A stretch of 64,000 nt of DNA from positions 4,487,001 through 4,551,000 of the forward strand of contig NZ_CP036281.1 in NCBI RefSeq assembly GCF_007750395.1, read 5' to 3'. A program made the position numbers and the translations under genes. This document shows, in pieces, positions 8,110-41,703 of this stretch (its first letter is position 1; each line of letters opens with the position of its first letter). This DNA is from Polystyrenella longa. GTDB taxonomy: Bacteria > Planctomycetota > Planctomycetia > Planctomycetales > Planctomycetaceae. Below the pieces are notes generated by a model, which searched no databases, was not told the DNA's origin, and saw only the letters and a list, made by a program, of their open reading frames with translations.

Positions 8110-9912
8110 CTATTGACCAAAGTTCTGCTTCGACCAGGGAGAATTTTTCATTACTGGGGCATCAGCAAAAGGATTGTTTGTATCCAATGCTGGTAAATAA
8201 CGATCCTGAGGGAGGGCAGTTGTCTGCGGAGCAGCCTGTGTCAGATCTCCAGTTGAGGGAAGATTCTGAGCGCCTGAGGTAAAAGGATTGTTCATTGCGG
8301 GAACATTCTGCACTGCGGGGACATTTTGCACTGCGGGGACCTGATGCATCGCGGGAATCTTGGTTGGTTGTGGATTGTGGTTCAAGTAATTAATCAGTTT
8401 CGGAGTCGCCTTGTTAATTAATACAATTCGAGGTTCCGCGTTGGGATCGCCATTGGGGCGAACCAGGCAAATGATCTCGGAGTTTCCGGATTGAGCCAAG
8501 GCTTGCTGCAACAGTTCCATCTCCCGGGACCCGGGCTGTGGCATCGTGTTCGCGACATTCGCATTGGGCTGAGATCCCTCGGCCAGATTCCCAAACGGAT
8601 CGCCCCCCCTCATTTGTTGCGAAGGCAAATTCTCTTCCAACGAAGGAAAGCTGGAAGGTGCGGGTGTATCGGCAATCACGCTTTCCGTTTCAATTGTTGC
8701 GGGATGCAGGAACGAAACCTGAGATTGGTCAAGGAATCGATAGATAGGCTTCAAGCTTGTGTAGATGCCCCGTTGATCTTCCGGTTGGGCACAGATACAG
8801 ACACCCACCAATTCTCCTCCCGAAGTAAACAGTCCGCCACCAGAACGTCCCCGCTCGGGTACGGTCGTGCATTCAATCGTGTCTGGACCTTCATAGCGGT
8901 TCAACTGTGTGACTTCCATTTTAATCTGAGTTGGCAGTTCGCCACCACCACAGCCAATACTGCAAACTTCTTCCTGTGGAACCGGCAGGCTGGTTAGAGA
9001 AGCTACAGGTGATGTGGGAAACTCATAATTAAACTGGAGATAAAGCAATCCAAGGTCGACTGCTTCCGCGTCGTAGTTAACCAGCTTCGCTTTGAGAGTG
9101 CGTGGTTTCCCTTGGTAAAACACGTCAACTTCGACTTCTTCTCCCTGCTTCAAACCACGGAAGATATGACCGCAGGAGAGAATATATGTTTTCTGATTAG
9201 AGCTGGAGATAATGGTACCAGTTCCAAAGTTGACTCCCCCTCCATCGCTAACTCGAATTCGTACAGTTGAGATCGCCCCTTGTGAAAAATCGACAGCAGT
9301 CTCGGTGGCTGCCAGGTCCGATTCCGGACGAACAGCCTGAGCAGTGACGGAGGCCGGTTTTTCCTTGGCACCTAAACCAAAGGATCCAAAATCAAACGCG
9401 TTGTTAGACTCTTCATTCACAACAAACTTGATTTCGTGTCCTGCTGAATTTCCAGATGAAGAAGTCGCCCCATCAAGAGATCGCTTTTCACCGTTCACTT
9501 CTGCGAGTGCTTTGTACTTTTGCAGATTATTATCACGCGCGGTCGTTGCTGTGGCCAGCATTTCCTGCAATGTCTGCTGAAACCCTTCCCCGCTGTAATA
9601 CAGTTGTCGTTGTTTGATTTTGCCGTCGACCAGCAGGACGAAGCAAGGCAGAGCATTTACGCCCATTCTGTTCATCAGGCCTGAGTTCTTGTCGGCGTCG
9701 ACCTTCTGGATTGGATATCCATCTCGAACCAGTTTGGAAACCATCGGTGCGATTTTGCGACAAGGTCCACACCAGGTGGCGGAAAATTCGAGGACAATAT
9801 TCCTACGTTCCATCTTGTCGATGACATCGTCTTCGATAGCGTAGAGAGAAGTCGTACAGAGTCCGATAATGAGGGTCGAGACAAGAATCCGTTGAGCTTT
9901 AATGGCTGGCAC
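8110..9912 (-). CDS. Exported thioredoxin-trypsin fusion protein
   Basis: The 600-aa product starts with a signal peptide (about residues 1-25, ending in TSLYA). A thioredoxin domain with the active site WCGPC (Cys48, Cys51) and the cis-Pro motif ALPC follows. A trypsin-like domain covers about 205-410 with a likely triad His249 (SCGHIF), Asp286 (AVDLGLL) and Ser357 (GRSGGGL). The tail is low-complexity, with VPAVQN repeats near 545-560 and many Pro/Gln/Asn. It probably acts outside the cytoplasm on disulfide-bonded or misfolded proteins; the pairing is an inference. The start is a GTG: an in-frame TGA lies 18 nt upstream, and the next in-frame Met (residue 34) would lose the signal peptide. 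Confidence 0.85.
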   Translation of the reverse strand: MPAIKAQRILVSTLIIGLCTTSLYAIEDDVIDKMERRNIVLEFSATWCGPCRKIAPMVSKLVRDGYPIQKVDADKNSGLMNRMGVNALPCFVLLVDGKIKQRQLYYSGEGFQQTLQEMLATATTARDNNLQKYKALAEVNGEKRSLDGATSSSGNSAGHEIKFVVNEESNNAFDFGSFGLGAKEKPASVTAQAVRPESDLAATETAVDFSQGAISTVRIRVSDGGGVNFGTGTIISSSNQKTYILSCGHIFRGLKQGEEVEVDVFYQGKPRTLKAKLVNYDAEAVDLGLLYLQFNYEFPTSPVASLTSLPVPQEEVCSIGCGGGELPTQIKMEVTQLNRYEGPDTIECTTVPERGRSGGGLFTSGGELVGVCICAQPEDQRGIYTSLKPIYRFLDQSQVSFLHPATIETESVIADTPAPSSFPSLEENLPSQQMRGGDPFGNLAEGSQPNANVANTMPQPGSREMELLQQALAQSGNSEIICLVRPNGDPNAEPRIVLINKATPKLINYLNHNPQPTKIPAMHQVPAVQNVPAVQNVPAMNNPFTSGAQNLPSTGDLTQAAPQTTALPQDRYLPALDTNNPFADAPVMKNSPWSKQNFGQ

Positions 9913-37134: not shown

Positions 37135-40100
37135 ATGAGCTCTCAGGGACCCAAGATGGATCTGAAGTTGTTCAGAGTCATTGGAGCAACCGCCTGTGCA
37201 ACTGTCGCGGCCGCCTCCTTATGGCTACTCTATCCGAACGATGCCGTAGAAACTGTGCGTGCATCAGAAGCCCGCGGACAGGTCAGTGCATCGCAATATT
37301 CCAAGCAAAGCATTTCCGCAACGCGATACCTGACTTTAGGTAAAGAGCATCTGCGGGCAGGTCGCCAACCGGCGGCTGTCCGGGCTTTCCGGGCCGCTCT
37401 CGCTAATGCCTCTGAACTGACCATGCAGGAGCGTAACGAAGCGCGACAATTCCTGAGTCAGCTCGACCCGACCTCAACTAAAGTGAGCAGTCAGGTCAGC
37501 GAGGAAATGCAAATTCCCGCTCAGGCTGCCAAAACAGTCGAAGCCATCAAAGTTGATGACCTGATGACTCGAGCCAAGCTGGCATTGCAACAGGGCGAAC
37601 GAAAAGACGCCCAACAACTTGCTGCCGAAGCTCAGAATCTGGTCGAATCGCACAATGTTGAGCTCTCACCAATCGCGGAGAAACCGGTCGATTTCCTGAG
37701 TGACCTCGCCTCTGGCAAGACAACCGTACGCGGACAGTCACCGGAAGAGGAAGAGAACCCCTTCCAGCTGGTAGATGAATCTGACACGGCTGATGCGACC
37801 TCGTCTTTGAAAGAGAAAGCTCAATCGCTCCTCAACGATGCGGAAGCAGACTTGAAAGCGGGCTTTTACGCTCAAGCACGAAAAAAAGCATTGCAAGCCA
37901 GCGAACTTCATTCCGACTGGAACCTGTTCGAAAACAGCCCACAAGCGATCATTCGCGAACTGGACCGACTCTCGGGTGGAAAGACTCTCTCCAGCGAATC
38001 AGCAGTCACTGCTAATGCTGATGTGACTGAAACTAAGAAGAAAGTAGTTGAACTGCTTCTTGAAGCTCGCTTGGCTATTCAGGCTGGCAAGCTTGATGTT
38101 GCACGAGAGAAAGCAATTGCTGCTCAACAATACAAAGTTTCCTTCAGTAAATACGACGACCGACCGGACCTGCTCCTGGGCGATATCAATCGACTCGAAA
38201 CGAGCAAAGGCTTTAACGCCTTCAACCCAAATCCGGCAGACAGCCAGGCACTGCAAAACAGCTCGAAATATCTGGCTGCACGCAAACTCCTGACTGACGC
38301 TCGCGAATTACTGATTGTCAACAACCTTACCGAAGCCAAAGCGAAAGCACTGGAAGCGGAAGGACTGGATGTTGTTTATGAAATTAACGATGACCGTCCC
38401 GATGCTGTCCTGCTCGAAATCAATCGTCGTATGGCACGGCTGAATGGACAGGAAGGAGCACCTTCTCTTTCCGCCAGCCAGTTTGGTCAACTCGACGAAA
38501 TGGCAAACGCCCTGGCATCGAAAACGGCTAAACAACAAGATCAGCAGAACAACGCTGACACAGGTATGGAACGATCAGCTCAAGGTGAAGTCGCCATTTC
38601 TCAAATCCAGCAGATTGGATACGAAGAAGTTGCGGCCAACGAAGGCACTAACCCCTTCGCACCTATCGAAACAGCCGCACAGGAAATCAACACTGTTGTT
38701 CCTGATGGTTTAACAGCAACCCAGTGGTTCGACCATGGGGTCAAACTGATGCAAAGCAATCAACGCGACGAAGCCTACAAGGCCTTCGTCAAAGCTCATC
38801 AGTCTGGCGATCAACTCGATACCTTCCGTGCTCGTAACCTTTCTGAACTGCTGCAGGCAACTGCACCGCGAAAAGGAAATGGAATCGAACTGACCACAGC
38901 GACTCAGGACTTCAGTGCCGAGCCAGCTCCTCTCGATCTGGCAGCACAGGAAGAAGTCGTTCGCTTCGATCGCTTGCGAACTGAAGTGATGAACGCAACC
39001 TTCCGTGCCGATCGTCTGACCGAGAAAGACCCGGAGAAAGCTCTGGATATCATCGACCGCGCCATGTCGACTGTCGAAGGTTCTCAACTTGCAGAAAATA
39101 TGTCGAGTCCGTTGATCAAACAGCTGACTGCTTCCCGCGTTCAGGTGGAGCAGTACCAGAAACGGATGGCTCCGATCCTGGAACAGGAAAAACGGAATAG
39201 GGATGTAGAAGAAACAATTAAAACAGAGATCGATACATCCGTCCGTATTGAACAGGAAATCGGCTCTCTCGTTGAAGACTACAACAAGTTGATGAAACAG
39301 GGACATTACGCTGACGCAGAACGTGTGGCTAAAGAAGTTCGTGCTCTCGACCCGGCCAACCCGGTTGGAGTCAGCATGTTCTGGAAAGCCCGCATCACTC
39401 GTCGCAACTCCGATATTGAAGACCTGAAAGAACGCAAAGAAGACGCCTTCGTGGCAACTCTATGGGAAGTTGAAGAAGCGGCTGTACCACACAGTGGTTC
39501 TCCCTTCCAATACGGTGAAATTCAGGAGTGGAAAGATCTGACCGAGCGACGTAAACATATGCGTTCGGATGGACGTCACCGCACCATGCGGGAAATTCAG
39601 ATTGACGAAAGTCTGCATGACCGAATCTCACTGAACTTTGAACAGGCTCCTATCTCGGAAGTCTTCGAACATATCGAAAAGATTACCGCGATCAACATCT
39701 GGCTCGATACCAAAGCGATGACCGATGCAGGTGTCGAATTGTCGACTCCGATCACAATCAAAGTAGATGGTATTCAGTTACGAAGTGCTCTGTCACTGAT
39801 GCTGGAACAACTCGGCCTGGCCTACATGATCGATCACGAAGTTCTCAAGATCACTTCGATTGAAAAACAAAAAGGGGACATGCGGTCGGTACCTTACGAC
39901 GTGGCTGATCTGGTTATGCCGCTGAATCCGGAAGCCTACAACCCGAACTTAGGAAAAAGCCCGTTCGCAGGCGTCAACGACGGCATCGACAGCTATAACT
40001 TCAGCGTCAATGGTTCGTCGGGTGGCAATAACATGGCCAGCGTCCCGAACGTATTTACTGGAAATGGTTTTGGCGGAGCGGGAGCAAAATCCCAATCAGT

Positions 40101-41703
40101 CAGTGGCCCTTCTCATGCCGACTTCGAATCTCTTCGACAGGTTCTCATCTCTACAGTTGAGCCTGACACCTGGGAAGAAGCAGGTGGAGAAGCTTCCATC
40201 AGCCATCACGATAGTACATTGACCTTGATTATTCGTCAGACAGAAGATGTCCACTCGGAAATCGCTGACTTGCTCGAACAGCTGAGAACGCTGCAAGACC
40301 TCCAGGTTACGATTGAAGTACGGTTCATCACTGTCAGTGACCGGTTCTTCGAACGTATCGGTGTCGACTTTGACCTCAATGTTCAAGACAACGTCGATGG
40401 TGACGATTCGGGCTATCCCGGCTTTGGTTCTCCTCAAGGTACTGGAATTGCAGGTACCACGGGAACGACGGGTACCACGGGTACCACAGGAACTACAGGC
40501 ACGACTGGTACGACTGGTGGCACCACAGGTACAACCGGCACGACTGGTACAACCGGCACGACTGGTACAACCGGCACGACTGGAACAACCGGTACAACCG
40601 GAGGAGGAGGAGGCTCACCATTTACTCCCCAGAACGTCTTAAACACGCCCCCTCTCGATTCTTGGCCGAACTCGGGTACGATCGTGGGTCTGTCCCAACC
40701 AGGAGTATTCACCTCCGACTTGGACGTACAGTTCCAACAGGGTTCGTTTGACATCGGGGTACCTGACTTCGGCGGTTTCCAACCGACCGCAGGTATTCAG
40801 GTCGGTATGGCCATCTTGAGTGACCTGGAAGCATTCTTCTTCATCCAGGCTGCTCAGGGAGACGAGCGTTCGAACCTGTTGTTCGCTCCGAAAGTAACTA
40901 CTTATAACGGTATCTCAGCAACCATTACGGACTCGGTTTCACGACCATTCGTGACTTCGCTCCAACCGGTTGTTGGTAACTTTGCTGTCGGCTTTCAGCC
41001 GGTCATTACAACACTTGATGAAGGGGTTACTTTGACGGTTCTGCCAGTCGTCTCGGCGGACCGACGATATGTCCGTGTGACCGTGACTCCACAATTCTCC
41101 AACGTGACTGACGTCTTTACTTTCGCCTTCCTCTCTGGTGGTACTGGAGCAGGTGGAGTTGGTGGAGGCGGTGGTGTCGGCGGAACTGCGGGTGTCAACG
41201 GTGGTAACATCGGTGGAAATACAGGTGTCGGCGGTATCAGTGGCACCAGCGGTATCAGCGGTAACAACGGGATTGGAGCCGGTGGTATCGGAGGAATAGC
41301 AGGAACCACGGGAACCACGGGCCAGACTGGAACCACAGGCCAGACAGGCCAGACAGGAACCACGGGAACCACGGGAACCACGGGAACCACGGGAACTGGT
41401 GGAGATGCGGGAGCCGGATTATCCGTCTCAGTACAACAGCCTGTTTACGAACAACTGTTCGTCACCACAACTGTCTCTGTACCGGATGGTGGTACTGTCG
41501 TCCTCGGTGGTATCAAGCGACTCCGTGAAGGTCGAAACATGGCAGGGGTTCCGATTTTGAATAAAATCCCTTATGTCAGTCGACTCTTCAAGAACACGGG
41601 TGTTGGTCGTGAGACTGAAAGCCTGATGCTGATGGTGACTCCTCGAATCATCATCCAGGAAGAAGAAGAAGCTCTGCTGGGTGTCGAAGAAGACTCCCTG
41701 TAG
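37135..41703 (+). CDS. Secretin-family protein with TPR-like N-terminus and Gly-Thr-Thr repeats
   Basis: The 1522-aa protein has an N-terminal hydrophobic segment (about 13-30). Several repeats of about 100 residues follow with LL.ARLAI(Q)AGKLDVAR(E)KA-type helices, then a coiled region. An STN/secretin-N-like domain covers about 822-905 (NFEQAPISEVFEHIEKITAINIW is its core). The C-terminal secretin domain runs from about 995 to 1500, with VTIEVRFITVSDRFFERIG and the closing VPILNKIPYVSRLFKN. Secretins form multimeric outer-membrane channels for type II secretion or pili. No gsp or pil gene is adjacent. Two collagen-like Gly-Thr-Thr tracts interrupt the secretin domain. AAGGGAAGA lies upstream of the ATG. 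Confidence 0.87.
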   Translation: MSSQGPKMDLKLFRVIGATACATVAAASLWLLYPNDAVETVRASEARGQVSASQYSKQSISATRYLTLGKEHLRAGRQPAAVRAFRAALANASELTMQERNEARQFLSQLDPTSTKVSSQVSEEMQIPAQAAKTVEAIKVDDLMTRAKLALQQGERKDAQQLAAEAQNLVESHNVELSPIAEKPVDFLSDLASGKTTVRGQSPEEEENPFQLVDESDTADATSSLKEKAQSLLNDAEADLKAGFYAQARKKALQASELHSDWNLFENSPQAIIRELDRLSGGKTLSSESAVTANADVTETKKKVVELLLEARLAIQAGKLDVAREKAIAAQQYKVSFSKYDDRPDLLLGDINRLETSKGFNAFNPNPADSQALQNSSKYLAARKLLTDARELLIVNNLTEAKAKALEAEGLDVVYEINDDRPDAVLLEINRRMARLNGQEGAPSLSASQFGQLDEMANALASKTAKQQDQQNNADTGMERSAQGEVAISQIQQIGYEEVAANEGTNPFAPIETAAQEINTVVPDGLTATQWFDHGVKLMQSNQRDEAYKAFVKAHQSGDQLDTFRARNLSELLQATAPRKGNGIELTTATQDFSAEPAPLDLAAQEEVVRFDRLRTEVMNATFRADRLTEKDPEKALDIIDRAMSTVEGSQLAENMSSPLIKQLTASRVQVEQYQKRMAPILEQEKRNRDVEETIKTEIDTSVRIEQEIGSLVEDYNKLMKQGHYADAERVAKEVRALDPANPVGVSMFWKARITRRNSDIEDLKERKEDAFVATLWEVEEAAVPHSGSPFQYGEIQEWKDLTERRKHMRSDGRHRTMREIQIDESLHDRISLNFEQAPISEVFEHIEKITAINIWLDTKAMTDAGVELSTPITIKVDGIQLRSALSLMLEQLGLAYMIDHEVLKITSIEKQKGDMRSVPYDVADLVMPLNPEAYNPNLGKSPFAGVNDGIDSYNFSVNGSSGGNNMASVPNVFTGNGFGGAGAKSQSVSGPSHADFESLRQVLISTVEPDTWEEAGGEASISHHDSTLTLIIRQTEDVHSEIADLLEQLRTLQDLQVTIEVRFITVSDRFFERIGVDFDLNVQDNVDGDDSGYPGFGSPQGTGIAGTTGTTGTTGTTGTTGTTGTTGGTTGTTGTTGTTGTTGTTGTTGTTGTTGGGGGSPFTPQNVLNTPPLDSWPNSGTIVGLSQPGVFTSDLDVQFQQGSFDIGVPDFGGFQPTAGIQVGMAILSDLEAFFFIQAAQGDERSNLLFAPKVTTYNGISATITDSVSRPFVTSLQPVVGNFAVGFQPVITTLDEGVTLTVLPVVSADRRYVRVTVTPQFSNVTDVFTFAFLSGGTGAGGVGGGGGVGGTAGVNGGNIGGNTGVGGISGTSGISGNNGIGAGGIGGIAGTTGTTGQTGTTGQTGQTGTTGTTGTTGTTGTGGDAGAGLSVSVQQPVYEQLFVTTTVSVPDGGTVVLGGIKRLREGRNMAGVPILNKIPYVSRLFKNTGVGRETESLMLMVTPRIIIQEEEEALLGVEEDSL
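40453..40599 (+). repeat. Gly-Thr-Thr coding tandem repeat in secretin
   Basis: Forty-nine codons encode near-perfect Gly-Thr-Thr triplets (one extra Gly breaks the phase). At DNA level the unit is 9 nt with synonymous variation (GGTACAACC, GGCACGACT), and an 18-nt higher-order repeat in the second half. It is collagen-like in pattern (Gly at every third position) but without proline. Confidence 0.9.
41302..41397 (+). repeat. Second Gly-Thr-Thr / Gly-Gln-Thr tandem repeat in secretin
   Basis: Thirty-two codons encode Gly-Thr-Thr triplets mixed with Gly-Gln-Thr. The DNA is more uniform than in the first tract (GGAACCACG repeated), suggesting recent expansion. A Gly/Ile/Asn-rich segment precedes it from about 41145. 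Confidence 0.88.

What the first reader, a model, noticed from the sequence alone, without database searches (positions are those of the whole stretch)
40453..41397. Collagen-like Gly-Thr-Thr tracts inside a secretin domain
Two tandem-repeat tracts (49 and 32 codons) with Gly at every third position sit between the beta segments of the secretin domain of a 1522-aa protein. A Gly/Ile/Asn-rich stretch precedes the second. Secretins normally have short loops here. The tracts could form a surface-exposed glycosylated or triple-helical extension on the channel. Unit-length DNA repeats imply length variation between strains.
Basis: partly seen in the sequence, partly recalled or inferred. Interest (0 to 1): 0.6.

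Follow-up and report, generated by a model that had tools for sequence, protein, structure and literature searches.

The report
Disordered repeat loops at secretin gates
In a planctomycete outer-membrane pore protein, the two loops that in related pores form the upper and central gates are replaced by long floppy repeats whose make-up matches each other, which suggests a polymer-like plug rather than a collagen-like surface fibre.

Summary
The 1522-aa protein (37135-41703) is a Planctomycetaceae secretin with low-complexity inserts at two sites: (GTT)7-G-(GTT)9 and a G/I/N-rich stretch plus (GTT/GQT)10. Orthologues across the family carry low-complexity inserts at the same two sites, but with QQG, AAG, TTTQ, GNQ or N units. 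The sites match the two gates of solved secretins: insert 1 lies in the beta-lip (where the Vibrio-type top gate forms), and insert 2 replaces the Gate 2 loop that points into the pore. AlphaFold gives both inserts pLDDT below 50. Within a protein the two inserts share composition far beyond chance (36 species, p=5e-5) and beyond nearest relatives; this survives GC and phylogeny corrections and is absent for a third disordered loop. DNA words are shared within tracts but not between them beyond synonymous shuffles, so the match is at protein level. (GTT)3 occurs nowhere else in the 6.1-Mb genome. Best reading: two rings of disordered chains that mix and seal a wide pore without a rigid door. 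The mechanism is inferred. Main rival: slippage in tolerant loops under a shared bias. New variant of a known kind.

The parts
37135..41703 (+). whole secretin gene, 1522 aa
   Evidence: ORF; PF00263 E=8.6e-22; matches in 59 of 59 related genomes
37318..39483 (+). all-alpha TPR-like periplasmic half (residues about 62-783)
   Evidence: AlphaFold2 on A2: paired helices then long helices, pLDDT about 90 in most helices; weak TPR_2/TPR_14 Pfam hits
39625..39879 (+). N0/STN-like domain
   Evidence: model residues 1-85 match N0 domains of XcpQ, GspD and PilQ, Z about 9, rmsd about 2-3 A
39937..40110 (+). disordered loop inside the N3-like domain, used as control
   Evidence: pLDDT below 50 at model residues 105-162; no composition match with the other two inserts
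40357..40836 (+). beta-lip (apical) region, about 160 residues
   Evidence: corresponds to f1 pIV residues 199-234 by anchors E185=E231 and pIV 236=406 of the model (my reading, PMC8563730)
40387..40722 (+). insert 1 (112 aa) as defined for comparison with relatives
   Evidence: alignment of the family; pLDDT below 50 over model 251-350
40453..40599 (+). repeat tract 1, (GTT)7 G (GTT)9
40933..41025 (+). Gate 1 equivalent (pIV G267-G297)
   Evidence: HMMER alignment to 7ofh: pIV G297 = invariant model G467
41116..41430 (+). insert 2 (105 aa) replacing the Gate 2 loop
   Evidence: pIV N335 = model 600 and D321 about 491; pLDDT below 50 at 506-596
41302..41397 (+). repeat tract 2, GTT/GQT units
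41431..41652 (+). C-terminal outer-barrel strands with the PDGGTVVLGG signature
   Evidence: PF00263 positions 93-168; AlphaFold strands 600-676

Best explanation
[quoted passage not shown] SHOWN here: family-wide presence at these two sites, predicted disorder, divergent units, rapid length turnover, and a specific protein-level match between the two inserts. INFERRED: in the oligomer the rings meet in the lumen and at the mouth, their like-with-like composition lets them mix, and together they form a soft plug that keeps the pore tight at rest yet yields to a pilus or large substrate.
For: Sites: HMMER alignment to pIV with gate boundaries from PMC8563730; fold match to GspD, pIV, PilQ, InvG and RcpA secretins, Z 11-13, Foldseek E to 1.6e-19. 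Disorder: pLDDT below 50. Conservation of site but not sequence. Matching: within-protein similarity z=5.6-5.9, p=5e-5, 36 species; greater than to the nearest relative's loop in 29 of 36, p=6e-5; contrasts on a tree, Q r=0.62 p=6e-5, T 0.62, A 0.56, N 0.60; GC-corrected z=5.1; third disordered loop z=-1.0 and -0.6. Protein level: shared 12-mers exceed synonymous shuffles within tracts (p=0.007 and 4e-8) but not between (p=0.12, 17 of 36). Secretin-specific units. Known roles: central gate seals and the top gate adds watertightness (PMC10550240); apical regions there are 34-101 aa against about 160 here. Volume: insert 2 of 15 subunits is about 150,000 cubic A against about 166,000 for a 65 x 50 A lumen (15-mer and dimensions assumed).
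Against: No multimer model or experiment; subunit number and open/closed state unknown. Some members have little repeat in one loop (L037, L039) and some outside the family expand only the lip (L044, L049, L062), so pairing is not obligatory. The match could reflect a shared mutational bias acting on expandable repeats. Loop lengths do not correlate (rho 0.21, p=0.23).
Confidence: 0.5

Rival explanations
1. By-product of replication slippage: loop tips of a secretin tolerate insertions, DNA repeats expand there, and the two tracts resemble each other because both are filtered in the same way for flexible neutral peptides under one genome's mutational bias. No joint function.
For: Within-tract DNA homogenisation exceeds synonymous shuffles in both tracts; four identical 9-mers in tract 2; length changes between species with 98-99% identical cores.
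Against: The units are rare elsewhere in the same genomes; composition match survives GC correction and phylogeny; no excess DNA sharing between tracts; inserts kept across the whole family.
Confidence: 0.3
2. One reading: collagen-like triple-helical or Thr-glycosylated surface extension.
For: Gly at every third position in this genus; Thr-rich; PDB collagens score as low-complexity matches.
Against: Gly-x-x phase not kept in the family; almost no Pro in insert 2; phase slip in tract 1; Thr replaced by Gln, Ala or Asn; insert 2 maps to the lumen.
Confidence: 0.06
3. The chains act as a capture or guide brush for a particular passenger (pilus-like fibre or polysaccharide entering or leaving through crateriform structures), and the composition is tuned to that passenger.
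For: Planctomycetes take dextran and GFP into the periplasm by an unknown route, with pili-like fibres leaving crateriform structures (PMC5394234); the genome has 24 DUF1559 (PF07596) matches, known to me as pseudopilin-like, and 11 T2SSE matches.
Against: No evidence that this secretin forms crateriform structures; no pilus or secretion gene among the neighbours tested.
Confidence: 0.12

Closest known systems
Vibrio-type GspD top (cap) gate, T2SS secretins
   Same: An insertion in the apical lip that narrows the mouth; variable in length and composition
   Different: Known top gates are paired beta strands, apical region 34-101 aa (PMC10550240); here about 160 aa and predicted disordered with tandem repeats
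Gate 2 loop of pIV, PilQ and GspD secretins
   Same: Same place between the last inner-barrel strand and the strand before the DGGTxxxGG motif
   Different: About 14 residues between the hinges in pIV, and roughly 15-30 in other secretins of this genome (my reading of the and 61 sequences); here about 105, low complexity, uncharged
FG-nucleoporin mesh of the nuclear pore
   Same: Only as a working analogy: a ring of disordered low-complexity chains filling a wide channel
   Different: No homology; no FG repeats in this protein; selectivity never tested
Bacterial collagen-like proteins (BclA, Scl type)
   Same: Gly-Thr-Thr triplets in this genus
   Different: No kept Gly-x-x phase in orthologues, almost no Pro, loops tethered at both ends

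Membership tests
Secretin (PF00263) | C-terminal secretin domain with the VxDGxTxxxGG signature | tested here: met
   E=8.6e-22; invariant PDGG and GG columns
Secretin (PF00263) | double-walled beta-barrel fold with N0 and N3 domains | tested here: met
   fold match to GspD, pIV, PilQ and InvG over N0, N3 and barrel
Secretin (PF00263) | 12-15-mer outer-membrane ring | not testable with these tools
   monomer prediction only
T2SS GspD | gene among gsp/xcp genes | tested here: not met
   the six neighbours tested are mfd, a PpiC-type isomerase, SMP-30/gluconolactonase, panB, folE and an FAD/Fe-S oxidase
Vibrio-type top gate | lip region of 80 or more residues | tested here: met
   about 160 residues (alignment; threshold)
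Vibrio-type top gate | two ordered beta strands converging over the pore | tested here: inconclusive
   insert predicted disordered in the monomer, pLDDT below 50; absence of predicted strands is not proof of absence
Collagen-like | long uninterrupted Gly-x-y repeat | tested here: inconclusive
   runs of 7, 9 and 10 triplets here, broken by a one-residue slip; runs of 4 or more absent in 19 of 37 members
Collagen-like | Pro-rich x/y positions | tested here: not met
   no Pro in the tracts; 0.5% Pro in insert 2 across the family
Collagen-like | free trimerising chains | not testable with these tools
   each tract lies between two barrel strands of one chain, which makes a parallel trimer unlikely
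FG-nucleoporin-like barrier | FG/GLFG/FxFG repeats | tested here: not met
   no such repeats in the window's inserts; works-like analogy only

The most novel reading that the evidence does not exclude
A bacterial outer-membrane pore gated by two co-evolving rings of disordered low-complexity chains, a soft polymer barrier analogous in principle to the nuclear pore's FG mesh but of independent origin, kept by selection for like-with-like composition between the central-gate and top-gate loops.
Probability: 0.3. Interest if true: 0.85.

Novelty: new variant of a known kind. Interest (0 to 1): 0.62.

Why it matters
How very wide secretin pores stay tight at rest is an open question, and the known answers are folded beta-strand gates. 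Here both gate loops have become long disordered repeats with matched composition, a natural experiment in soft gating across a whole bacterial family. Planctomycetes also take up intact macromolecules by an unidentified outer-membrane route and have genetic tools in Planctopirus limnophila, so the idea can be tested directly.

Tried and rejected
Collagen triple helix. Assembly artefact. DNA copying between the two tracts. Genome base composition as cause of the match and shared ancestry. Whole-protein composition bias (N3 loop control). Secretion operon context: none among the neighbours tested. Literature for disordered or Gly-rich secretin gates or a planctomycete report: nothing found in the held library. 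An alignment to other secretins of the genome spread the insert over gaps and was not used for the gate assignment; the pIV anchors were.

Full report
WHAT IS THERE. The gene at 37135-41703 encodes 1522 aa: an all-alpha TPR-like half (AlphaFold), an N0/STN-like domain, an N3-like domain and a secretin barrel. Two repeat tracts interrupt the barrel: 40453-40599, (GTT)7 G (GTT)9, and 41302-41397, GTT/GQT, the second preceded by a Gly/Ile/Asn-rich stretch. The (GTT)3 pattern is confined to these tracts in the 6.1-Mb, one-contig genome.

RELATIVES. All 59 genomes searched have matches to the protein. In the window's own family (Planctomycetaceae; named records include Gimesia, Schlesneria and Planctomicrobium) both sites carry low-complexity inserts, median about 96 and 88 aa, but the unit differs: GTT, QQG, AAG, GAQG, GTA, GNQ and N14, poly-Gly with Phe, TTTQ. 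Members whose Gate 2 loop is not Gly-rich, mostly other families of the class and Pirellulales, have mostly shorter loops (insert 2 of 24-61 aa apart from two low-Gly members of the main group), often charged or Ser-rich. A few others (L044, L049, L062) have a Gly-rich lip of 123-149 aa with a short Gate 2 of 24-25 aa, so the two expansions are separable. Species with 93-99% identical cores nearly always differ in insert length, which supports the expected length variation between species; strains were not available.

WHERE THE INSERTS SIT. A profile of the family aligns to f1 pIV (7ofh) so that pIV hinge Gly297 falls on invariant Gly467 of the model (protein residue = model + 830) and pIV Ile342 on Val607. 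PMC8563730 places Gate 1 at 267-297, Gate 2 hinges at Asp321 and Asn335, and the beta-lip at 199-234. Insert 2 (model 498-602) is therefore the Gate 2 loop, which in solved secretins points into the pore, and insert 1 lies in the beta-lip, the position of the Vibrio-type top gate. The lip here is about 160 residues; the apical region of 6167 T2SS secretins analysed in PMC10550240 ranges from 34 to 101. The other secretins of the same genome match PF00263 in one unbroken piece, without the Gate 2 insertion. AlphaFold gives both inserts pLDDT below 50 within a confident barrel.

THE TWO INSERTS MATCH. Across 36 non-redundant members, the composition of insert 1 (Gly left out) resembles insert 2 of the same protein far more than of other proteins (z 5.6-5.9, p=5e-5) and more than that of the nearest relative in 29 of 36 (p=6e-5). 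Independent contrasts on a tree of the barrel core give r=0.62 for Gln and Thr, 0.56 for Ala and 0.60 for Asn. Correction for GC content and permutation within GC quartiles leave z about 4.7-5.1 with 38 members. A third disordered loop of the same protein, in the N3 domain, shows no such match with either insert (z -1.0 and -0.6). At the DNA level, exact 12-mers recur within each tract more than synonymous shuffles allow (p=0.007 and 4e-8) but are not shared between tracts in excess (p=0.12; 17 of 36; zero in the window). Each tract therefore seems to expand by its own slippage, while the peptide type is held in common. The (GTT)3 and GTA tracts examined are mostly or only in the secretin; QQG tracts were also found in two other kinds of protein.

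MECHANISM. Shown: site, predicted disorder, divergence, matching. Inferred: in a ring of about 15 subunits the Gate 2 inserts alone amount to about 150,000 cubic angstroms, comparable with a lumen 65 A wide and 50 A high (ring number and dimensions assumed). The lip inserts would cover the mouth. In T2SS secretins the central gate seals and an added top gate increases watertightness (PMC10550240). I propose that here both functions are carried by soft, mixing chains. What passes through is unknown; gene context gives no secretion partner. A link to crateriform structures and macromolecule uptake (PMC5394234) is attractive but untested.

Triple helix or glycan display is not supported: Gly phase, Pro content and Thr are not conserved, and the chains are tethered at both ends. 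Glycosylation in this genus alone cannot be excluded.

LIMITS. The N3 control loop is not a tandem repeat, so it controls for genome and protein composition but not fully for a bias in which repeats can expand; the rarity of the same units elsewhere in the genomes answers this only in part. Many relatives are metagenome-assembled genomes. Insert boundaries include short non-repeat flanks. The conserved secretin salt bridge (pIV E185-R337) keeps the Glu here but the Arg position aligns to a non-Arg residue, so gate details may differ. No paper on disordered secretin gates or on this planctomycete feature was found in the held library, which lacks most subscription journals.

Noticed in passing
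window 8110-9912 (-): 600-aa protein that reads as a thioredoxin-like start fused to a trypsin-like protease part, with a C-terminal VPAVQN repeat (18-bp tandem repeat at 8296-8355).
   Followed up: no
L044, L049, L062: Related secretins outside the window's family with a Gly-rich lip of 123-149 aa but a short Gate 2 loop of 24-25 aa: the two expansions are separable in evolution.
   Followed up: partly
L012, L013, L014, L018, L102, L104 (insert 2): Many insert-2 loops carry a conserved hydrophobic patch in mid-loop (FGIGGG..M..LFxQ or GFGGIGGG), absent from the window protein; possibly a cohesive or helical spot.
   Followed up: no
L161, L162, L163: QQG tracts outside the secretin: in long charged proteins of G001 and G020 and in a large protein of G027.
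   Followed up: partly
window genome, whole: 24 DUF1559 (PF07596) and 11 T2SSE (PF00437) matches, none inside the window; three further secretins elsewhere in the genome.
   Followed up: partly
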